From positions 167,855 to 231,854 of the forward strand of contig JABANP010000038.1 of the NCBI GenBank assembly GCA_013115135.1: 64,000 bases of DNA, given 5' to 3'. Position numbers and translations under genes: made by a program. The notes beneath the pieces are model-generated. The model was not told the origin of the DNA. It made no database searches and saw only the letters and a program-made list of their open reading frames with translations. How positions within the stretch are numbered: the stretch's first letter is position 1; every line of letters starts with the position of its first letter. This DNA comes from Perkinsus olseni (Eukaryota; Perkinsozoa; Perkinsida; Perkinsidae). Below, piece after piece: positions 22,962 through 64,000 of the stretch.

Positions 22962-23042
22962 TAGTTTCGCCTACAGTTGTGGCATCGTGTTGAAGGATGG
23001 GTAAAGCTAGAGGTGTCAGATATTGACTTTGATTGTACTTGT

Positions 23043-24527
23043 ATGCGCCCTCCTCCTCCCTTATCGTACTTGCGTCGCTCCGCCTTACCAGGGCTCACCC
23101 TGCTGGCCATGGGATGTTATTTGTTATACTCATCAGTGGCCTTTACGACTGGTCTATTCGTTACCCCGTTGTCGCCTCCACTCGACCGAAGCACAGTGCA
23201 AGCCGCTGGGCTTCCTTCTACTGCGGCTTCCTACTCCTTTGGTGGTACGCCCCTAGATGGAGGCACTGCGACGTCGTCCCTCAGCCACAGGTTTCTGCAG
23301 CTACTCGCCATTGGTGGTGCATTGGGGGCGGCCACGCGTGTAATAGATCGAATAAGAAAGAGAGCAGCCGAAGGCGTTAGTGCGGGGGCAGCAGCATCCA
23401 ATGGTAATGGTCTGCATGTATCCAACCTGCATGCCGTGCTGGCTGAGAATCCTGAGGTGTCCATCCTCAACGGAGTTACCTTGGACCTCGAGCCTGGTGA
23501 AGTTGTAGCACTGCTTGGTCCCAATGGCTGCGGAAAAAGCAGCTTCGCTCGAGTCATGATGGGCGATTCACAATACGAAGTCACCCATGGTAGAGTTGAG
23601 ATGGACGGTGAGGATGTCCTAGCGCTAGATGTCGACGAGCGCGCCTCGAAGCTTGGCCTGTTCATGTCGTGGCAGGCGCCCGTGGAGGTGCCGGGCATAA
23701 CCAATTTCACTTTGCTGCACGCTGCCTTGAATGCATCGAGGCAGGCCCAAGGGCTGCCGGAGCTGTCGCCCTTCGAGTTTTACGATTTTGCCAAATCTCG
23801 GCTGATGGAGGTTGAGCGAGGAGTTGAACTGCTAGAGTATCTTGACAGGCCTGTTAACACAGGGATGTCGGGTGGTGAACGAAAGCGTGTTGAGCTTCTC
23901 CATGCGGTGGTCCTCCGACCCAAACTCTGCGTGTTTGACGAGATTGACAGCGGTCTGGATGTGGATGCCTTGAAACAGGTAATAGATGGCAAATCGTTTG
24001 GTAGTGTAACCACACGCGTGCATCATCCGCAGAGTGCCGCCTCGGCATAGGGACCGCTGAGTACTCCATCAGTGGCGACCAGGTGGTCTCTAGGGTCAAG
24101 TATGAATTTATGTCTTAGAATTGTATACCATAACGGCGCGTGTTTTCTTGCGCCGGCTGGCAGTAGAACCGGTATCAAGGCGCATGTCGTGCTGCATGGA
24201 GCACGTCTTCCCACGAGGGTGGAACATTCTGACTCGTTCGCTCCACGATTCCACCTAGCGTGCTTCCTGCGTAGTCTATTGTCCGTATTCAGGTTGCTAC
24301 AACTCTTCGGTCCCTCTGCGAGGTTGATAAATCCAATGACGATGCTGATAGTATCCCATTACAAGCGTATGCTTGATGAGCTCCATCCGAGTAGGGTGAT
24401 GGTTATGCAGGATGGTGTAATAGTCCATCAAGGTGGTCCGGAGCTCATTAACGAAGTGGATAGGGGAGGGTTCAAGAGGGAATGGCTTACAACGAGTGAT
24501 GATGATGATTATCCTCAAAGTATCTAG
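23043..24527 (+). CDS. sufC: SufC, Fe-S cluster assembly ATPase with plastid-type leader
   Basis: ABC-type ATPase of the SUF system, which builds Fe-S clusters in plastids together with SufB and SufD. ATG 23043 opens a hydrophobic signal-anchor (LTLLAMGCYLLYSSVAFTTG, about residues 18-37), then a Ser/Thr/Ala-rich stretch of about 90 residues, as in bipartite leaders for secondary plastids. The ATPase has Walker A LLGPNGCGKSSF (about 23510), signature MSGGERKRVEL (about 23865), Walker B LCVFDEIDSGLDVDALK (about 23929) and the switch-region LIVSHYKRML (about 24347). After Walker B comes an intron of about 315 bp. The next short exon (VATTLRSLCE) and the LIVSHY exon are out of phase by +1, so this region is not fully solved. 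The stop is at 24525-24527. Bacterial SufC lacks the leader. Confidence 0.9.
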
Positions 24528-42288: not shown

Positions 42289-45200
42289 TTATGCCGAGTT
42301 CAAGAGATCCCAGAAATCATCATCTAACTCTTTGCTGCCCGCCGCCCCTTTGGCGCCACTTTGCTGCTTCTCATCGCTCACAGGCTTCGGCACTCCTTCG
42401 TGATGCGCAGCAGAGTGGATGGCGGTGGTGGGCAGGTGATTCATCTCCTGCTTTGGCCTCTCCTCGTCTGCGGACTTCGCCCGTGGACTTTCCTGGTCGA
42501 AACTCCAGCCGCCGGAAGGTTGTTGCAAGTCTGGCTCTGTGTGGGCGTTGACCGAATGGCTCCAGAGGGGCTCCGAGTTACCCAGCTGAGCTGCAGCAGC
42601 CGTGGGGGACGCTGGGTGCCTGTGAGGGCTCTCAACATGGTCATCCCAACCGTCCAGTGCCAAACTATCAACTTCTGTCTCATCCCAGAGATTAGTCGGT
42701 TCCTCCGCTTCATGCAGAGGCTTCGACTCCACGACCGCCTTCGAATCTTCCGAGAGTGCAGCCTCCTGTGCCGGATGGGCAATCTCGTGCGGAACAGGAG
42801 CGGGGCTGCTCTGCGCAACCGGTGACGCCTTCGCTTCTTGACAGCGCTCAGTAGTAGTATCCACTAGCTCGTGAGACTCAGCATCATTCTTCTCAGCACC
42901 CGTCGCTGTCACGCTTGTCTGTGCCTGTTGCTCTGTGTGTGGGTGAGCATCTTCCCACGCGCCCCAGAAATCATCGATGTCGTCATGGCTGTCGTCCCAC
43001 GGCGTCGCTTGACCTTGCTGGGCATCTTCCGTGAGAGCACCGAGATCTAACGGCTTCTCAGGTATCGGCGCGGCCGGCTGCTGCTGCTGCTGGGCATGCT
43101 TGGGGGAATCCCAGGGTGTCGGAGAGCGCTCCTGCTCACTATCTGCTGCCGCCTTGCTGGTGTCCAGAACGTCGAAGTCGAAATCCGCCGCAGCTGCTGA
43201 ACTCGCGGGCTCAGGCAGTGGCACCGCCTCGTCGTTGCCATCAGACTCAAAACCATCACTTCCTACTCCTACTGGCGAGTCGTGATGGACCTCGCCTGCG
43301 GGAACTACGCCGCTGGGTTCGTCGCTCGGGGCGGCTCCATCGCCATCATGGCCGTCGTCCGCGGGGGCTACAACACCGTGGCCGTCGTCCGCGGGGGCTA
43401 CAACACCGTGGCCGTCGTCCGCGGAGGCTACAACACCGTGGGCGTCGTCCGCGGGGGCTACAACACCGTGGCCGTCGTCCGCGGGGGCTACAACACCGTG
43501 GGCGTCGTCCGCGGGGGCTACAACACCGTGGCCGTCGTCCGCGGGGGCTACAACACCGTGGGCGTCGTCCGCGGGGGCTACAACACCGTGGGCGTGGGTC
43601 GGGGACTGGGTAGACCCAACTGGACTCTCATCCACGGGGGCTCTCTGTTCTGTGGCGACAGAAGGGGACGCAGGAGGCTCCAGAGAAGGGCTCCCGCTTT
43701 GGCTATCAGCTGCTTCTTGTAGAGCCGCTTCATGATCGTCAGGCGTATCTTCTGCATCCATCATCTCCTCCTCGGGCACTGCTGCTACGATCTCCGGTGT
43801 CTTGCTGGGAGCCTCGTGTGCTGATGGGTCAGTAGCCCCTCCAGGGCGACGCTCCTCGGGAGGTGCTGCAGCATCTTCCTCATCCTGCTGCTGCTGGTGA
43901 AGCCGCAATGACCCCGAGCTCACATCCTCGGTACTCTCTGGCTGCCGGGCTGCTGCTGCTGCTGGTGACGATGTGTCTTCTTCTATCGGCCACTCGTCCC
44001 ATGAGCCACTATGATGAGTATCCTCCCCTGAGGTGGTGTCGGCTACATCAGCATCCCTCTGAGTGGCCTCTGGCCGGTTGTCTTGCTCGGGACTAGACTC
44101 GACAGCCTGCAGCCTCTCCGGCTCCACCGACTCCTCGGCTGACGAGCCAGCGAAGTCCAAGCCCTCAGAGCCGGTAGAACCCATCGGCCGCGCCCGCTCT
44201 GGTCGTGCTCCACCAGTGCCGCCATCAGCCCCTTCCATGTCCCTGGTGGCCTCTGGTTGGCTGGAGGCTGCAGCAACCTCTGTCGTTGTGGCTATAGAAC
44301 CCTGACGCTCCGTGGACCAAGCCTCACCAGGACCGCTACTCGCCGACGAGGACGAGGGCGGCGGGGCCTGGCTGGTCTCGGCCGTATTGGCGGCGAAGTT
44401 GTCCCAGCCATCAGATGAGGAGGTCTCGTCCACTCTGTTAGGCGGAGGCACGTCTCCTATCGTCGATTCGGGATGACCCCCCACCACGCTTGGCGCCACT
44501 TGGGTGCTCCAGCCATCAGTCTCGCTACGGAGAACATCGGCTCTGGCGAGAGAAAGAGTCGGGATAGCCGGCAAGTCGCTCTCGTTCTGTGCCCCTGCTG
44601 CCTTGCTGGTGTGCTCGAGGTCCACGTCCTCGAACCGAGGAGAGTCGGGGATCGACGACTCCACCAGGTCTTGGAAGTACTGGATGGCAGCGCTGCAGTC
44701 AGGTGGTACTTCAGACGACTTGCTGGTGTCAGCGAGAAGGCCCGCAAGCGTGTCCTCCTCGTCACTAGCCGGGCTGGAAGGCAGGGGCTCGACAGCGTGG
44801 GAGGGAGACAAGTCGCTCTCCTCATCCTCATCACGATGGGACGTCTCCTCGGCATCCGCCTGAGATGAGGACTGAGCTTATCGATATCCAAGCTCCGAGG
44901 TGCAGGAGCCTACTGGTGTGGTGACGATCTGAGCCATCAAGGCGGACAACGAGGCCATGCGCTTGGGGAGGGCTTCGGATGCACGCTCTGGCCTTGACCG
45001 ACGGAGCCGTGAAGATTCCCTCTGCAACGACTCCAACGACTCTGAGAATGACCGTAGCCTGCATGCCCCTCGCGAGTGACCTGACTTACCAGTACTCTCG
45101 TCGCTCTTCTCAATAGACGGACTGGAGGACTTCTCCTCGCCCTGCTTCTCCTTCAGCTCCTTTATGGTCTGAAGATAGGAAAGGAAGCTGCTTTTGGCGA

Positions 45201-56000: not shown

Positions 56001-56508
56001 CGGAGAGGCCTGGCGGGCGGCTGATGGCGCTTCTGTTAGTACCAGACATTCCCCGCCTTATCAGTGTCCATGAAGCGGAATTGGCTTGTTTAGTTGGTGG
56101 ACCTTCGAGCACACGTCCCCCTTCCAATCCCGAATAGTACCATCCAAACTGCAACCTAGTTCAAATGTCAATAAGGGGCTTCCTAGGGGGGGAATAGACT
56201 TACTGACTAAGTCGCCATCGGAATTGAGGCAGAGGCCAGTGACGGCATCCTCGTGGCCACACAATACCGATACCAATCGTTCAGCACTGATGCTGTATTT
56301 AAGGATCTCCTTCCCACTACCGCAGTAGAGGAACCTAGGGGGAACGGTAGTCACCGACTGACCTCAAGTCTGCTGTTTACTTGCTGTCCCGAGAGAACAC
56401 TGGCTTCACTTTAGAAAGGTCCCCCGATATGATCTCCGCCCGTAGGGATGGGACGTCGGCGAAATCCACCTTCTGGGGCTTCATTGAGACGCCCGTCGCA
56501 GGACTCAT
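53050..56508 (-). CDS. WDR75: WDR75/UTP17-like WD40 protein (small-subunit processome)
   Basis: UTP17 acts in the t-UTP subcomplex in early pre-rRNA transcription and processing in the nucleolus. ATG at 56508 opens MSPATGVSMKPQKVDFADVP. An intron of 43 bp joins KP to SVTTVPPRFLYCGSGKEILK, then HEDAVTGLCLNSDGDLV and SCSLDGTIRDWKGDV (about 56130-56290), closely matching the WDR75 'YSCSLDGTIKLW' repeat. Later come AVIGKGNSVSIVDVNNNQ (about 55150), ETLLKFWDRKANRLHTVVKL (about 54520), LLTLKTTKTITFHGK (about 53780), the acidic EEAAEDNRMIVDEKMDDEEE and IEDLIEAMDQWNLADDKL. The C-terminal APSHVCPMPSKLLPDLLDRI matches the family's end, with the stop at 53050-53052. The middle exons (54.9-56.0 kb) are incompletely resolved. 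Confidence 0.75.
54811..54895 (-). tRNA. tRNA-like fragment (B-box and T arm)
   Basis: On the reverse strand a perfect 5-bp T stem (GTGGG/CCCAC) encloses loop TTCTATT, with an A-box-like TAGTGTAGCGG about 45 nt before it. The acceptor halves do not pair. Probably a tRNA relic inside an intron or exon border of the WD40 gene. Confidence 0.35.
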
Positions 56509-56813: not shown

Positions 56814-57611
56814 TGCGAGACTGCTGCTACTGCAGTTGTCAAGCACACGTATTGGGAGCTTCTAACGAGACATCCTGTCTCTGCTGTCAGTCTTTGGACG
56901 TGATTGAGACTGCCCCTCAATCACCTTCACAGTGGTGGCCCTCGCGATCGAGCGAAGCCCTGGAGGTTCAGCATAAATGATCATACACACACATGAACCA
57001 TTTACGTCGCTTAATGTAAGACTGCGCTATCCGAAGTGACGAATCAGAATCTGAGGCTGACTACATTGTCGAAGAATCAGAGGCAAGCGTGGTGGTTCGA
57101 TAGGTGTATGTTAGCTGTTGAATCTCTCCAGTAACAATCGGGCGTCCAGCACCGTGCTCACCCCGTGCACGCCTGGTTCTAATCAAAACAATGGGACTAA
57201 ACCCTGATTGTCACCACCGAATGCACGTACCGCAGAGTGGCTGTGAGGACCGTACGTATCTCATAACTGCTTCTCCACCGGCGGAGTAAATTGAGAGACC
57301 ACCCACCCGTCAGTAATGGTGATAGCTCGGTTCTTTGTACGGACGTTGTAATGCGTACGAGGCTCAGTTATGTGGATCGCTACAAGATTTCTTCGCCTAC
57401 CACTACGTCTGTGTAGATGCGTCAGTCAAAGAAGAGCTGCTATGCGGACGGTGTAGCTCTTGCTTCGCTCAGTGAACTTATCAGGTATTCCAGATATTCG
57501 CTTTCGTTGAGATCGATGAGGTTATGGGTGCGCTCAAGACCTTCTTGCCGTTGAGTTTGTCACATATCGGGAAGGAGCTACCCTGGCCGAGTGCAGTTTA
57601 TCAAACTCATC
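56814..57611. promoter_or_regulatory. upstream region of the repeat-protein gene
   Basis: About 800 bp with stops in all frames, the only stretch available for the promoter and 5' UTR of the gene starting at 57612. No defined promoter element was recognised. Confidence 0.3.
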
Positions 57612-60600
57612 ATGTCATGCTTTTTTCCTATCGTATTAGCTTGGTTAAGCCTCGTATCAGCTGAGGACCGGGATAAGGAGAACCTCAGTAAACCACTCAC
57701 TGCGGGAATCAACACGATCTGGAGCACAAAGCGGGTGCCAGAAACTGCTGGCTCGAAGGGGGTATGGGATAAATCAACAACGGCGAGCTCGTTCACTGGT
57801 CTCCAAGGCTGGGCGGCGAGTTCCCATGTGCCTCAAGTCGGAAGATCCAGTGCCTTTTCCGGGCATACGGCAGAACCCGACGCAGGCATATCTGGAGTTT
57901 GGAATGGTGGCTCGGTGGTTCGAGATCTTGGCCAGTCTAGCGGCTGGGTCAAAGGCGAATCCACAGAGATCAAGGACTCAATCAAAGATCCCGCGTCTGT
58001 GACTAGAAGCGATATCTGGTGGAAAACTCCTGTACAAGCAGTGGGTGGAGCCTCGGAACTCTGGCAACGCGAAGATTCTGATGCGTCTGCTGGCGGTTCC
58101 TCTGTATATCGAACTGTAGATGGATCTTCGACATCAGGAATCAACACGATGTGGAGCACAGAGGGGCCGCCGGAAATTTCTGGCTCGGAGGGGGTGTGGG
58201 ATAAATCAACAACGGCGAGCTCATCCACTGGTCTCCAAGGCTGGGCAGCGAGTTCCCATGTGCCTCAAGTCGGAAGATCCAGTGCCTTTTCCGGGCATAC
58301 GGCAGAACCCGACGCAGGCATATCTGGAGTTTGGAATGGTGGCTCAGTGGTTCGAGATATTGGCCAGTCTAGCGGCTGGGTCAAAGGCGAATCCACAGAG
58401 ATCAAGGACTCAATCAAAGATCCCGCGTCTGTGACTAGAAGCGATATCTGGTGGAAAACTCCTGTACAAGCAGTGGGTGGAGCCTCGGAACTCTGGCAAC
58501 GCGAAGATTCTGATGCGTCTGTTGGCGGTTCCTCTGTGTATCGAACTGTAGATGGATCTTCTACAGCAGGAATCAACACGATGTGGAGCACAGAGGGGCC
58601 GCCGGAAACTTCTGGCTCGAAGGGGGTATGGGATAAATCAACAGCAGCGAGCTCAACCACTGGTCTTCAAGGCAGGGCGGCAAGTTCGGCGAGTTCCCAT
58701 GTGCCTCAAGTCGGAAGATCCAGTGCCTTTTCCGGGCATACGGCAGAACCCGACGCAGGCATATCTGGAGTTTGGAATGGTGGCTCAGTGGTTCGAGATA
58801 TTGGCCAGTCTAGCGGCTGGGTCAAAGGCGAATCCACAGAGATCAAGGACTCAATCAAAGATCCCGCGTCTGTGACTAGAAGCGATATCTGGTGGAAAAC
58901 TCCTGTACAAGCAGTGGGTGGAGCCTCGGAACTCTGGCAACGCGAAGATTCTGATGCGTCTGTTGGCGGTTCCTCTGTGTATCAAACTGTAGATGGATCT
59001 TCTACAGCAGGAATCAACACGATGTGGAGCACAGAGGGGCCGCCGGAAACTTCTGGCTCGAAGGGGGTATGGGATAAATCAACAGCAGCGAGCTCAACCA
59101 CTGGTCTTCAAGGCTGGGCGGCGAGTTCCCATGTGCCTCAAGTCGGAAGATCCAGTGCCTTTTCCGGGCATACGGCAGAACCCGACGCAGGCATATCTGG
59201 AGTTTGGAATGGTGGCTCAGTGGTTCGAGATATTGGCCAGTCTAGCGGCTGGGTCAAAGGCGAATCCACAGAGATCAAGGACTCAATCAAAGATCCCGCG
59301 TCTGTGACTAGAAGCGATATCTGGTGGAAAACTCCTGTACAAGCAGTGGGTGGAGCCTCGGAACTCTGGCAACGCGAAGATTCTGATGCGTCTGTTGGCG
59401 GTTCCTCTGTGTATCAAACTGTAGATGGATCTTCTACAGCAGGAATCAACACGATGTGGAGCACAGAGGGGCCGCCGGAAACTTCTGGCTCGAAGGGGGT
59501 ATGGGATAAATCAACAGCAGCGAGCTCATCCACTGGTCTTCAAGGCTGGGCGGCGAGTTCCCATGTGCCTCAAGTCGGAAGATCCAGTGCCTTTTCCGGG
59601 CATACGGCAGAACCCGACGCAGGCATATCTGGAGTTTGGAATGGTGGCTCAGTGGTTCGAGATATTGGCCAGTCTAGCGGCTGGGTCAAAGGCGAATCCA
59701 CAGAGATCATGGACTCAATCAAAGATCCCGCGTCTGTGACTAGAAGCGATATCTGGTGGAAAACTCCTGCACAAGCAGTGGGTGGAGCCTCGGAACTCTG
59801 GCAACGCGAAGATTCTGATGCGTCTGTTGGCGGTTCCTCTGTGTATCAAACTGTAGATGGATCTTCTACAGCAGGAATCAACACGATGTGGAGCACAGAG
59901 GGGCCGCCGGAAATTTCTGGCTCGGAGGGGGTGTGGGATAAATCAACAACGGCGAGCTCATCCACTGGTCTTCAAGGCTGGGCGGCGAGTTCCCATGTGC
60001 CTCAAGTCGGAAGATCCAGTGCCTTTTCCGGGCATACGGCAGAACCCGACGCAGGCATATCTGGAGTTTGGAATGGTGGCTCGGTGGTTCGAGATCTTGG
60101 CCAGTCTAGCGGCTGGGTCAAAGGCGAATCCACAGAGATCAAGGACTCAATCAAAGATCCCGCGTCTGTGACTAGAAGCGATATCTGGTGGAAAACTCCT
60201 GCACAAGCAGTGGGTGGAGCCTCGGAACTCTGGCAACGCGAAGATTCTGATGCGTCTGCTGGCGGTTCCTCTGTGTATCAAACTGTAGATGGATCTTCAA
60301 CAGCAGGAATCAACACGATGTGGACCACAGAGGGGCCGCCGGAAATTTCTGGCTCGGAGGGGGTGTGGGATAAATCAACAACGGCGAGCTCGTCCACTGG
60401 TCTCCAAGGCTGGGCAGCGAGTTCCCATGTGCCTCAAGTCGGAAGATCCAGTGCCTTTTCCGGGCATACGGCAGAACCCGACGCAGGCATATCTGGAGTT
60501 TGGAATGGTGGCTCAGTGGTTCGAGATATTGGCCAGTCTAGCGGCTGGGTCAAAGGCGAATCCACAGAGATCAAGGACTCAATCAAAGATCCCGCGTCTG

Positions 60601-63600
60601 TGACTAGAAGCGATATCTGGTGGAAAACTCCTGTACAAGCAGTGGGTGGAGCCTCGGAACTCTGGCAACGCGAAGATTCTGATGCGTCTGTTGGCGGTTC
60701 CTCTGTGTATCAAACTGTAGATGGATCTTCTACAGCAGGAATCAACACGATGTGGAGCACAGAGGGGCCGCCGGAAACTTCTGGCTCGAAGGGGGTATGG
60801 GATAAATCAACAGCAGCGAGCTCAACCACTGGTCTTCAAGGCTGGGCGGCGAGTTCCCATGTGCCTCAAGTCGGAAGATCCAGTGCCTTTTCCGGGCATA
60901 CGGCAGAACCCGACGCAGGCATATCTGGAGTTTGGAATGGTGGCTCAGTGGTTCGAGATATTGGCCAGTCTAGCGGCTGGGTCAAAGGCGAATCCACAGA
61001 GAGCAAGGACTCAATCAAAGATCCCGCGTCTGTGACTAGAAGCGATATCTGGTGGAAAACTCCTGCACAAGCAGTGGGTGGAGCCTCGGAACTCTGGCAA
61101 CGCGAAGATTCTGATGCGTCTGTTGGCGGTTCCTCTGTGTATCAAACTGTAGATGGATCTTCTACAGCAGGAATCAACACGATGTGGAGCACAGAGGGGC
61201 CGCCGGAAACTTCTGGCTCGAAGGGGGTATGGGATAAATCAACAGCAGCGAGCTCATCCACTGGTCTTCAAGGCTGGGCGGCGAGTTCCCATGTGCCTCA
61301 AGTCGGAAGATCCAGTGCCTTTTCCGGGCATACGGCAGAACCCGACGCAGGCATATCTGGAGTTTGGAATGGTGGCTCGGTGGTTCGAGATCTTGGCCAG
61401 TCTAGCGGATGGGTCAAAGGTGAATCCACAGAGATCAAGGACTCAATCAAAGATCCCGCGTCTGTGACTAGAAACGATATCTGGTGGAAAACTCCGGCAC
61501 AAGTACTGGGTGGAGCCTCGGAACTCTGGCAACGAGAAGGTTCTGATGCGTCTGCTGGCGGTTCCTCTGTATATCGAACTGTAGATGGATCTTCGACATC
61601 AGGAATCAACACGATGTGGAGCACAGAGGGGCCGCCGGAAATTTCTGGCTCGGAGGGGGTGTGGGATAAATCAACAACGGCGAGCTCATCCACTGGTCTC
61701 CAAGGCTGGGCAGCGAGTTCCCATGTGCCTCAAGTCGGAAGATCCAGTGCCTTTTCCGGGCATACGGCAGAACCCGACGCAGGCATATCTGGAGTTTGGA
61801 ATGGTGGCTCAGTGGTTCGAGATATTGGCCAGTCTAGCGGCTGGGTCAAAGGCGAATCCACAGAGATCAAGGACTCAATCAAAGATCCCGCGTCTGTGAC
61901 TAGAAGCGATATCTGGTGGAAAACTCCTGCACAAGCAGTGGGTGGAGCCTCGGAACTCTGGCAACGCGAAGATTCTGATGCGTCTGCTGGCGGTTCCTCT
62001 GTGTATCAAACTGTAGATGGATCTTCAACAGCAGGAATCAACACGATGTGGACCACAGAGGGGCCGCCGGAAATTTCTGGCTCGGAGGGGGTGTGGGATA
62101 AATCAACAGCAGCGAGCTCGTCCACTGGTCTCCAAGGCTGGGCGGCGAGTTCCCATGTGCCTCAAGTCGGAAGATCCAGTGCCTTTTCCGGGCATACGGC
62201 AGAACCCGACGCAGGCATATCTGGAGTTTGGAATGGTGGCTCGGTGGTTCGAGATCTTGGCCAGTCTAGCGGATGGGTCAAAGGTGAATCCACAGAGATC
62301 AAGGACTCAATCAAAGATCTCGCGTCTGTGACTAGAAACGATATCTGGTGGAAAACTCCTGTACAAGCAGTGGGTGGAGCCTCGGAACTCTGGCAACGCG
62401 AAGGTTCTGATGCGTCTGCTGGCGGTTCCTCTGTATATCGAACTGTAGATGGATCTTCGACATCAGGAATCAACACGATGTGGAGCACAGAGGGGCCGCC
62501 GGAAATTTCTGGCTCGGAGGGGGTGTGGGATAAATCAACAACGGCGAGCTCATCCACTGGTCTCCAAGGCTGGGCAGCGAGTTCCCATGTGCCTCAAGTC
62601 GGAAGATCCAGTGCCTTTTCCGGGCATACGGCAGAACCCGACGCAGGCATATCTGGAGTTTGGAATGGTGGCTCGGTGGTTCGAGATGTTGGCCAGTCTA
62701 GCGGCTGGGTCAAAGGCGAATCCACAGAGATCAAGGACTCAATCAAAGATCCCGCGTCTGTGACTAGAAGCGATATCTGGTGGAAAACTCCTGCACAAGC
62801 AGTGGGTGGAGCCTCGGAACTCTGGCAACGAGAAGATTCTGATGCGTCTGTTGGCGGTTCCTCTGTGTATCAAACTGTAGATGGATCTTCAACAGCAGGA
62901 ATCAACACGATGTGGAGCACAGAGGGGCCGCCGGAAACTTCTGGCTCGAAGGGGGTATGGGATAAATCAACAACAGCGAGCTCATCCACTGGTCTTCAAG
63001 GCTGGGCGGCGAGTTCCCATGTGCCTCAAGTCGGAAGATCCAGTGCCTTTTCCGGGCATACGGCAGAACCCGACGCAGGCATATCTGGAGTTTGGAATGG
63101 TGGCTCGGTGGTTCGAGATGTTGGCCAGTCTAGCGGATGGGTCAAAGGCGAATCCACAGAGATCAAGGACTCAATCAAAGATCCCGCGTCTGTGACTAGA
63201 AACGATATCTGGTGGAAAACTCCTGCACAAGCAGTGGGTGGAGCCTCGGAACTCTGGCAACGAGAAGATTCTGATGCGTCTGCTGGCGGTTCCTCTGTGT
63301 ATCGAACTGTAGATGGATCTTCGACATCAGGAATCAACACGATGTGGAGCACAGAGGGGCCGCCGGAAATTTCTGGCTCGGAGGGGGTGTGGGATAAATC
63401 AACAACGGCGAGCTCATCCACTGGTCTCCAAGGCTGGGCAGCGAGTTCCCATGTGCCTCAAGTCGGAAGATCCAGTGCCTTTTCCGGGCATACGGCAGAA
63501 CCCGACGCAGGCATATCTGGAGTTTGGAATGGTGGCTCGGTGGTTCGAGATCTTGGCCAGTCTAGCGGCTGGGTCAAAGGCGAATCCACCGAGATCCAGG

Positions 63601-64000
63601 ACTCAATCAAAGATCCCGCGTCTGTGACTAGAAGCGATATCTGGTGGAAAACTCCTGCACAAGCAGTGGGTGGAGCCTCGGAACTCTGGCAACGCGAAGA
63701 TTCTGATGCGTCTGCTGGCGGTTCCTCTGTGTGTCAAACTGTAGATGGATCTTCAACAGCAGGAATCAACACGATGTGGACCACAGAGGGGCCGCCGGAA
63801 ACTTCTGGCTCGGAGGGGTGTGGGATAAATCAACAGCAGCGAGCTCGTCCACTGGTCTCCAAGGCTGGGCGGCGAGTTCCCATGTGCCTCAAGTCGGAAG
63901 ATCCAGTGCCTTTTTCCGGGCATACGGCAGAACCCGACGCAGGCATATCTGGAGTTTGGAATGGTGGCTCGGTGGTTCGAGATCTTGGCCAGTCTAGCGG
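57612..64000 (+). CDS. giant secreted protein built of 144-residue tandem repeats (3' end outside window)
   Basis: ATG 57612 gives a classic signal peptide, MSCFFPIVLAWLSLVSA, then EDRDKENLSKPL and a partial repeat (GINTIWS...GVWDKST). From 57795 the same frame reads 432-bp repeats with no stop codon to the window edge: 14 complete units and part of a fifteenth, over 2100 residues. Each unit has no Cys, eight Trp, and much Ser, Gly and Thr. Aromatic residues recur about every 15 positions (see findings). There is no intron in 6.4 kb, although neighbouring genes have one every 100-300 bp. One unit has 9 extra bases, which keeps the frame. Near the right end a lost G (63815-63818) is compensated by an extra T (63911-63915). 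Secretion follows from the signal peptide; surface coat, adhesin or wall function is inference. No known family was recognised. Confidence 0.8.
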   Translation, partial: MSCFFPIVLAWLSLVSAEDRDKENLSKPLTAGINTIWSTKRVPETAGSKGVWDKSTTASSFTGLQGWAASSHVPQVGRSSAFSGHTAEPDAGISGVWNGGSVVRDLGQSSGWVKGESTEIKDSIKDPASVTRSDIWWKTPVQAVGGASELWQREDSDASAGGSSVYRTVDGSSTSGINTMWSTEGPPEISGSEGVWDKSTTASSSTGLQGWAASSHVPQVGRSSAFSGHTAEPDAGISGVWNGGSVVRDIGQSSGWVKGESTEIKDSIKDPASVTRSDIWWKTPVQAVGGASELWQREDSDASVGGSSVYRTVDGSSTAGINTMWSTEGPPETSGSKGVWDKSTAASSTTGLQGRAASSASSHVPQVGRSSAFSGHTAEPDAGISGVWNGGSVVRDIGQSSGWVKGESTEIKDSIKDPASVTRSDIWWKTPVQAVGGASELWQREDSDASVGGSSVYQTVDGSSTAGINTMWSTEGPPETSGSKGVWDKSTAASSTTGLQGWAASSHVPQVGRSSAFSGHTAEPDAGISGVWNGGSVVRDIGQSSGWVKGESTEIKDSIKDPASVTRSDIWWKTPVQAVGGASELWQREDSDASVGGSSVYQTVDGSSTAGINTMWSTEGPPETSGSKGVWDKSTAASSSTGLQGWAASSHVPQVGRSSAFSGHTAEPDAGISGVWNGGSVVRDIGQSSGWVKGESTEIMDSIKDPASVTRSDIWWKTPAQAVGGASELWQREDSDASVGGSSVYQTVDGSSTAGINTMWSTEGPPEISGSEGVWDKSTTASSSTGLQGWAASSHVPQVGRSSAFSGHTAEPDAGISGVWNGGSVVRDLGQSSGWVKGESTEIKDSIKDPASVTRSDIWWKTPAQAVGGASELWQREDSDASAGGSSVYQTVDGSSTAGINTMWTTEGPPEISGSEGVWDKSTTASSSTGLQGWAASSHVPQVGRSSAFSGHTAEPDAGISGVWNGGSVVRDIGQSSGWVKGESTEIKDSIKDPASVTRSDIWWKTPVQAVGGASELWQREDSDASVGGSSVYQTVDGSSTAGINTMWSTEGPPETSGSKGVWDKSTAASSTTGLQGWAASSHVPQVGRSSAFSGHTAEPDAGISGVWNGGSVVRDIGQSSGWVKGESTESKDSIKDPASVTRSDIWWKTPAQAVGGASELWQREDSDASVGGSSVYQTVDGSSTAGINTMWSTEGPPETSGSKGVWDKSTAASSSTGLQGWAASSHVPQVGRSSAFSGHTAEPDAGISGVWNGGSVVRDLGQSSGWVKGESTEIKDSIKDPASVTRNDIWWKTPAQVLGGASELWQREGSDASAGGSSVYRTVDGSSTSGINTMWSTEGPPEISGSEGVWDKSTTASSSTGLQGWAASSHVPQVGRSSAFSGHTAEPDAGISGVWNGGSVVRDIGQSSGWVKGESTEIKDSIKDPASVTRSDIWWKTPAQAVGGASELWQREDSDASAGGSSVYQTVDGSSTAGINTMWTTEGPPEISGSEGVWDKSTAASSSTGLQGWAASSHVPQVGRSSAFSGHTAEPDAGISGVWNGGSVVRDLGQSSGWVKGESTEIKDSIKDLASVTRNDIWWKTPVQAVGGASELWQREGSDASAGGSSVYRTVDGSSTSGINTMWSTEGPPEISGSEGVWDKSTTASSSTGLQGWAASSHVPQVGRSSAFSGHTAEPDAGISGVWNGGSVVRDVGQSSGWVKGESTEIKDSIKDPASVTRSDIWWKTPAQAVGGASELWQREDSDASVGGSSVYQTVDGSSTAGINTMWSTEGPPETSGSKGVWDKSTTASSSTGLQGWAASSHVPQVGRSSAFSGHTAEPDAGISGVWNGGSVVRDVGQSSGWVKGESTEIKDSIKDPASVTRNDIWWKTPAQAVGGASELWQREDSDASAGGSSVYRTVDGSSTSGINTMWSTEGPPEISGSEGVWDKSTTASSSTGLQGWAASSHVPQVGRSSAFSGHTAEPDAGISGVWNGGSVVRDLGQSSGWVKGESTEIQDSIKDPASVTRSDIWWKTPAQAVGGASELWQREDSDASAGGSSVCQTVDGSSTAGINTMWTTEGPPETSGSEGCGINQQQRARPLVSKAGRRVPMCLKSEDPVPFSGHTAEPDAGISGVWNGGSVVRDLGQSS
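57795..64000 (+). repeat. 432-bp direct tandem array, 14 full units plus a partial unit
   Basis: Unit starts are at 57795, 58227, 58659, 59100, 59532, 59964, 60396, 60828, 61260, 61692, 62124, 62556, 62988, 63420 and 63851. All are 432 bp except the third (441 bp) and the fourteenth (431 bp). Units differ by scattered substitutions, many shared between units, so several subtypes exist. The array continues beyond the window. Confidence 0.97.

What the first reader, a model, noticed from the sequence alone, without database searches (positions are those of the whole stretch)
57612..64000. Intronless giant secreted protein made of near-identical 144-residue repeats
A signal peptide at 57612 leads directly into 14 complete 432-bp units that stay open in one frame for 6.4 kb. 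The repeat is Cys-free, rich in Trp, Ser, Gly and Thr, and matches no domain I know. The neighbouring genes are intron-rich and this one has none. Together this suggests a lineage-specific extracellular or wall/surface protein with copy-number evolution.
Basis: partly seen in the sequence, partly recalled or inferred. Interest (0 to 1): 0.88.

Follow-up and report, generated by a model that had tools for sequence, protein, structure and literature searches.

The report
Secreted parasite protein of tryptophan repeats
A species of Perkinsus, a genus of shellfish parasites, appears to encode a very long secreted protein made of 14 or more near-identical blocks, each built from nine 15-residue pieces that carry an aromatic residue at the same place, which would suit a sticky wall or matrix protein and matched nothing in the libraries searched.

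Summary
ATG 57612 opens a signal-peptide-like leader, then 14 complete units (13 of 432 bp, one of 441) and a 239-bp partial copy, with no stop up to base 64000. That is also the contig's end, so the 3' end and copy number are unknown. The host is a Perkinsus species.

New: each 144-residue unit is nine 15-residue sub-repeats (one with 9 extra residues), with Trp, Phe or Tyr at position 6 of every one. Codon positions 1 and 2 keep this 45-base register, position 3 does not, which supports translation in this frame. The open frame alone is weak evidence (3% by chance for one unit), and substitutions between units show no significant purifying selection.

No relative was found in the protein database, Pfam, NCBIfam or PDB; a control gene found P. 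chesapeaki and P. marinus. Most likely it is a secreted, multivalent aromatic 'sticker-and-spacer' protein of wall, surface or matrix. Secretion is inferred from the leader; function is not shown. Lack of introns is ordinary in this genus.

The parts
57612..57662 (+). Signal-peptide-like leader, residues 1-17, putative cleavage V-S-A/E-D
   Evidence: Sequence; 15-residue Kyte-Doolittle maximum 2.13 in the leader against 0.41 anywhere after residue 31 in the 14 units; first ATG after the in-frame TGA at 57552. No signal-peptide predictor was available.
57663..57704 (+). 14-residue charged spacer between leader and first unit
   Evidence: Translation; leader plus spacer (31 residues) found at one place only in the genome
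57705..63761 (+). 14 complete tandem units of 144 residues (unit 3 has 147)
   Evidence: pairwise DNA identity 94.2-99.8%, unit 3's extra 9 bp left out
58569..59009 (+). Unit 3, 441 bp, with an in-frame 9-bp addition and one Trp position changed to Arg
59010..59441 (+). Unit 4 as type unit; nine sub-repeats starting at 59010, 59055, 59100, 59145, 59190, 59235, 59307, 59352 and 59397, each 45 bp except the sixth (72 bp)
   Evidence: Aromatic residues at unit positions 6, 21, 36, 51, 66, 81, 105 (and 106), 120, 135
63762..64000 (+). Partial 15th copy at the contig end, open but out of register for about 30 residues

Best explanation
A protein-coding gene, found at one locus, of a Perkinsus species; it encodes a secreted, almost Cys-free, acidic, very long protein (at least 2,050 residues, 211 kDa, from the complete units alone). 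It is a two-level repeat: a 15-residue piece, roughly G-x-S-x-x-[W/F/Y] followed by a Ser/Thr/Gly/acidic stretch, was multiplied to nine copies that diverged and make a 144-residue unit, and that unit was later multiplied at least 14-fold and kept alike by unequal crossing-over or gene conversion. Proposed mechanism: after signal-peptide cleavage the chain acts as a multivalent 'sticker-and-spacer' polymer; evenly spaced aromatic side chains (139 in 14 units) stack on one another or on wall or host glycans, and the hydrophilic spacers keep the chain soluble and extended, so that the protein forms a cohesive wall, surface coat or secreted matrix whose strength scales with copy number. Shown: array, open frame, two-level register, no relative in the searches made. 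Inferred: translation, secretion, extended state. Speculative: wall or matrix location and aromatic cohesion.
For: Open frame and leader. 15-residue aromatic spacing: self-similarity of the unit at shift 15 has z 6.3, 0 of 2,000 shuffles reach it, and shifts 30, 45, 60 are the next three best; of 138 successive aromatic gaps in 14 units 93 are exactly 15. Protein-level register: identity at a 45-base shift is 0.42, 0.33, 0.22 for codon positions 1, 2, 3 against a background of 0.29, 0.26, 0.25 (z 3.9, 2.0, -0.9). Composition: Ser 18.6%, Gly 13.9%, Trp 5.5%, no N-glycosylation sequon in any unit; pI 4.7. AlphaFold2 gives no confident fold (mean pLDDT 36.7 and 31.7). Perkinsus is reported to have a high-molecular-weight wall protein (passage in PMC8062965).
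Against: No transcript or peptide was examined. Substitutions between units are only weakly biased: dN/dS 0.45, but 15 of 43 changes synonymous against 11.8 (SD 2.9) expected, P 0.17. Codon usage does not decide: with window ORFs the frame scores best of six, with HSP70 loci the reverse frame scores slightly better. At shifts of 90, 135 and 180 bases the codon-position signal is weak (largest z 1.6). A gapped self-alignment of the unit (score 98) is matched by at least one of 100 shuffles (maximum 102). The charge-hydropathy rule puts the repeats marginally on the folded side (H 0.444, boundary 0.429), and AlphaFold2 without diverse relatives often fails on folded proteins too. The C-terminus, which might carry an anchor, is unseen.
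Confidence: 0.5

Rival explanations
1. Non-coding 432-bp satellite or minisatellite whose unit happens to be open in one frame and whose start happens to lie behind a hydrophobic leader.
For: One unit has a 3.0% chance of an open frame in any of six; between-unit substitutions and codon usage do not prove coding; the array breaks the contig.
Against: The internal 45-base register is kept at codon positions 1 and 2 but not 3; the only length change among the 14 complete units is 9 bp; a leader lies in frame directly before the first unit.
Confidence: 0.12
2. A folded, not disordered, repeat protein: for example a solenoid with one 15-residue turn per sub-repeat and a stacked aromatic ladder, acting as a binding surface.
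For: 15-residue period with one aromatic each; charge-hydropathy marginally on the folded side; two three-residue strands at unit residues 105-107 and 120-122 in one model, at pLDDT under 50.
Against: AlphaFold2 shows no strand ladder in three units without an alignment or in one unit with the 14 units aligned, though neither had diverse relatives; the sub-repeats share little besides Gly, Ser and the aromatic.
Confidence: 0.2
3. A coding gene whose product is a secreted decoy or variable antigen with near-identical repeats, as known from apicomplexan parasites (recalled), and whose repeats have little structural role.
For: Near-identical, recombining repeats in a parasite genus with weak constraint between units.
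Against: Molluscan hosts make no antibodies (general knowledge); an aromatic register kept over nine diverged sub-repeats suggests a physical role.
Confidence: 0.12
4. An intracellular Trp-motif scaffold of the GW/WG (Argonaute-hook) type, with the N-terminus not used as a signal peptide.
For: Trp in a Gly/Ser/Thr/acidic setting; two GW pairs in the type unit.
Against: A hydrophobic leader with a cleavage-like site; no Pfam match over its cut-off.
Confidence: 0.04

Closest known systems
[quoted passage not shown] 2002, P. atlanticus)
   Same: Genus, large size and a wall location if our inference is right. Seen only as a passage and a reference title in PMC8062965; its name PWP-1 and a mass near 230 kDa are recalled, from no call.
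   Different: No sequence was available to compare (paper not held; nothing); the identity is untested.
Choline-binding / cell-wall-binding repeats (PF01473 kind; recalled)
   Same: Short aromatic and Gly repeats in long secreted proteins that bind wall polymers.
   Different: No Pfam match; about 20 residues with paired aromatics (recalled), here 15 with one.
Spruce-budworm-type 15-residue solenoids (recalled)
   Same: A 15-residue period.
   Different: No strand ladder predicted; those use Thr motifs and disulphides (recalled), 13 of 14 units here have no Cys.
GW/WG Argonaute-hook proteins (recalled)
   Same: Spaced Trp in a hydrophilic chain.
   Different: Intracellular; here a signal-peptide-like leader precedes the repeats.
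Secreted tandem-repeat antigens and wall proteins of apicomplexans (recalled)
   Same: Leader plus long near-identical repeats homogenised by recombination.
   Different: None was compared by sequence one to one; no such relative came up in the searches; here the repeats are Trp-based.

Membership tests
Secreted tandem-repeat protein (broad class) | N-terminal signal peptide | tested here: inconclusive
   Read by eye and by hydropathy; no predictor and no proteomics
Secreted tandem-repeat protein (broad class) | Long in-frame tandem repeats | tested here: met
Perkinsus wall protein 1 | Sequence or peptide identity | not testable with these tools
   Paper not held; no sequence at hand
Cell-wall-binding repeats (PF01473) or any Pfam repeat | Profile match over the curated cut-off | tested here: not met
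   Only DUF5457 at 21.2 bits (E 0.00031), under its cut-off of 25.2, no stretch passing on its own
NadS (NF041265) | Profile match over the curated cut-off | tested here: not met
   37.2 bits (E 2.7e-9), cut-off 60, no stretch passing on its own; best stretch 20 residues, so I read the score as a sum over copies
15-residue solenoid | Regular strand per repeat | tested here: inconclusive
   No ladder, but models of very low confidence
Argonaute-hook GW/WG protein | Cytoplasmic or nuclear location | tested here: inconclusive
   Leader argues against; location not measured
Non-coding satellite | No codon-position bias | tested here: not met
   Old register biased to positions 1 and 2; the recent substitutions between units are not significantly biased

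The most novel reading that the evidence does not exclude
The founding gene of a new class of extracellular material protein: a two-level Trp-15 repeat polymer that builds the Perkinsus wall or secreted matrix by aromatic stickers, possibly the large wall protein known from the genus, for which I saw no sequence.
Probability: 0.12. Interest if true: 0.65.

Novelty: new variant of a known kind. Interest (0 to 1): 0.45.

Why it matters
If translated and secreted, this is a protein with no match in the libraries searched and with an unusually regular aromatic register at two scales. It offers specific peptides that could link a gene to the large wall protein reported from Perkinsus, a genus of serious shellfish parasites, and a natural example of copy-number tuning of an aromatic sticker-and-spacer chain. 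The contig breaks inside the array, so such genes are likely to be missing or truncated in gene sets of this genus.

Tried and rejected
Homology: two protein searches of about 5.8 billion sequences found nothing at E <= 10 (residues 1-700 scored, candidates of about 1,175-3,738 residues; first 424 residues, candidates of about 233-742); only the 7,987 and 7,992 candidates sharing most words were scored, and proteins under 233, between 742 and 1,175 or over 3,738 residues were not covered. The control with a SufC-type ORF found P. chesapeaki (71%) first and P. marinus (86% over 64% of the query) third, an unnamed protein standing between, so the genus is in the database. PDB sequence search with one unit: 0 matches at E <= 10. 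Viral contigs: 24 stretches matched a pattern, 1 passed tblastn (37% over 42 residues, E 2e-5 relative to the candidate stretches only), which I take as chance without further test. Own genome: with one unit 17 matches at E <= 1, 16 of them in the array and one weak (E 0.09, 32% over 47 residues, one stop) on contig C602, in a stretch that I read by eye as retroelement-like, taken as chance; with 75 residues 15 of 15 matches at E <= 10 lie in the array; the tool scores only its best candidates. DUF5457 in the own genome: none, and no control genome rang, so uninformative. NadS and DUF5457 matches to the whole protein rejected as sums over copies. Fold search was not run because both models have mean pLDDT under 40.

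Considered and rejected: lack of introns as remarkable; a fixed higher-order repeat of units (mean identity by lag is highest at 4, 0.976, but lags 1-5 all lie between 0.968 and 0.976); an N-glycosylated coat (no sequon). The sub-repeat cuts were chosen after seeing the aromatic positions, so its score against shuffles (239 against -348, SD 48; with the aromatic column fixed 45, SD 43; 0 of 5,000 in both) is biased upward; better are and the codon-position test. Literature: searches (45 papers, 20 listed; 0; 2; 1; 13, 12 listed; 1; 1; 161, 10 listed) showed no title or abstract start describing this protein; passages were seen in PMC8062965, PMC9399869, PMC3101222 and PMC2868825, no paper was read whole.
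Full report
What was checked. That is right in substance. The frame from ATG 57612 has no stop up to base 64000, TRF calls a 432-bp period with 14.6 copies and 96% matches, and the units begin at 57705 and every 432 bp thereafter, except that the third is 441 bp through an in-frame 9-bp addition. Thirteen of 14 complete units lack Cys; unit 14 has one. The window end is the end of a 231,854-bp contig, so the gene's 3' end, any anchor and the real copy number are unseen. The partial 15th copy is open but out of the unit's register for about 30 residues because of two opposite one-base length differences in homopolymer runs; so close to a contig end I take this as probable consensus error, but cannot show it.

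How surprising is the open frame? Less than it looks. A random sequence with the dinucleotide make-up of a unit has one given frame open in 0.59% and at least one of six open in 3.0% of 20,000 trials; the remaining copies are duplicates. Evidence for coding has to come from elsewhere.

The second level of repetition. In the type unit (59010-59441) the aromatic residues stand at 6, 21, 36, 51, 66, 81, 105, 106, 120 and 135, and the next unit's first is at 150. Counted on 105, all steps are 15 except one of 24. Self-similarity of the unit at a shift of 15 residues has z 6.3 against shuffles (0 of 2,000 reach it), and shifts of 30, 45 and 60 follow. For the aromatic positions alone the largest spectral peak (period about 5, a harmonic of 15) was reached in 0 of 20,000 random placements for W, F and Y together and 25 of 20,000 for W alone. 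A gapped local self-alignment was less clear (98; 100 shuffles with mean 65, SD 13, maximum 102). Cut in this register, the unit is nine pieces with an aromatic at position 6 in nine of nine, Gly at position 1 in seven and Ser at position 3 in six. Across the 14 complete units 93 of 138 successive aromatic gaps are exactly 15. At the DNA level a shift of 45 bases is the best of 216 (identity 0.324; mean 0.253, SD 0.023).

Coding evidence. At a shift of 45 bases the identity is 0.42, 0.33 and 0.22 at codon positions 1, 2 and 3, against 0.29, 0.26 and 0.25 for other codon shifts (z 3.9, 2.0, -0.9); in the nine-piece register without the aromatic column it is 0.32, 0.31 and 0.22; at shifts of 90, 135 and 180 the signal is weak, largest z 1.6. 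So the old sub-repeats keep their amino-acid pattern while silent positions have drifted to background, which is what translation in this frame predicts. The recent evidence is weaker: dN/dS between units is 0.45, the lowest of the six frames (the next 0.60 and 0.64), but 15 of 43 inferred changes are synonymous against 11.8 (SD 2.9) expected, P 0.17. Codon usage favours the frame narrowly with four window ORFs as training; with the longest open frames of eight HSP70 loci the reverse frame scores slightly better (-0.294 against -0.309).

Recombination. Of 210 pairs of the 21 informative biallelic sites among the 14 units, 126 show all four combinations, so units probably exchange sequence by unequal crossing-over or conversion. 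No clear higher-order period of units was seen.

The organism. The genome (61.5 Mb, 968 contigs) holds 164 matches within two mismatches to the dinoflagellate spliced leader and none to the reversed pattern; most of the listed matches read CCGTAGCCATCTTGGCTCAAG, which is the P. marinus 22-base leader without its first base (PMC9399869 and PMC3101222, passages seen). A SufC-type ORF in the window has its best named relatives in P. chesapeaki (71%) and P. marinus (86% over 64% of the query). The species is therefore most likely a Perkinsus; which one I could not tell, and the ribosomal RNA search did not complete. Of eight neighbouring frames scanned, three pass Pfam cut-offs (a thioredoxin-domain protein, the ABC ATPase, a lysine-methyltransferase-like protein), one has a WD-repeat match below them and four have none. 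In Perkinsus 72 of 104 examined genes have introns (PMC3101222), so an intronless gene is ordinary.

Relatives. None was found: two protein searches, Pfam, NCBIfam, PDB sequences, viral contigs and the own genome gave only the array itself or weak matches that I reject. The positive control shows that the protein database holds P. marinus and P. chesapeaki proteins, but repeat genes are often truncated or left out of gene sets and not all lengths were covered, so absence from these species is not shown.

Structure. AlphaFold2 gives mean pLDDT 36.7 for three units without an alignment and 31.7 for one unit with the 14 units aligned. This fits a disordered chain, but the alignment carries little diversity, and the charge-hydropathy rule puts the repeats marginally on the folded side (0.444 against 0.429). 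Disorder is therefore likely from composition (Ser 18.6%, Gly 13.9%), not demonstrated.

How it most likely works. I commit to a secreted multivalent polymer: aromatic stickers every 15 residues in a hydrophilic acidic chain, at least 139 of them, cohering with each other or with glycans in the wall, coat or secreted matrix, with copy number setting length and valency. The leader makes secretion likely; the location and the cohesive role are inference from composition and from the report of a large wall protein in the genus (passage in PMC8062965). The main alternatives are a folded 15-residue solenoid, a repeat antigen or decoy, a chance-open satellite, and an intracellular Trp scaffold, with the tests that would separate them given above.

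Verdict. New variant of a known kind; interest 0.45.

Noticed in passing
window 43349-43595, inside the reverse-strand ORF 42289-44877: A second in-frame tandem repeat: 8.2 copies of 30 bp (HGVVAPADD-type decapeptides) in an 862-residue acidic ORF without Pfam match.
   Followed up: partly
window 22965-24050: SufC-type ABC ATPase ORF with a long N-terminal extension that includes a hydrophobic stretch, compatible with import into a relict plastid (read by eye).
   Followed up: partly
G000:C268:207896-235713, C41:105064-118486, C596, C238: Clusters of spliced-leader-like sequences; those listed on C596 and C238 read CCGTAGCCATTCTGGCTCAAG instead of the common form.
   Followed up: no
L026 (G000:C602), about 140-200: Retroelement-like frames that begin about 30 bases after a spliced-leader-like sequence (TCGTAGCCATCTTGGCTCAAG), read by eye only.
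   Followed up: no
G000:C112:31710-38357: Three HSP70-type genes in tandem on one strand; two match in one open frame each, the middle one has its first 34 profile positions in a separate match.
   Followed up: no
window 56061-56354, reverse strand: A WDR75-like WD-repeat piece upstream of the array on the opposite strand, below the Pfam cut-offs.
   Followed up: partly
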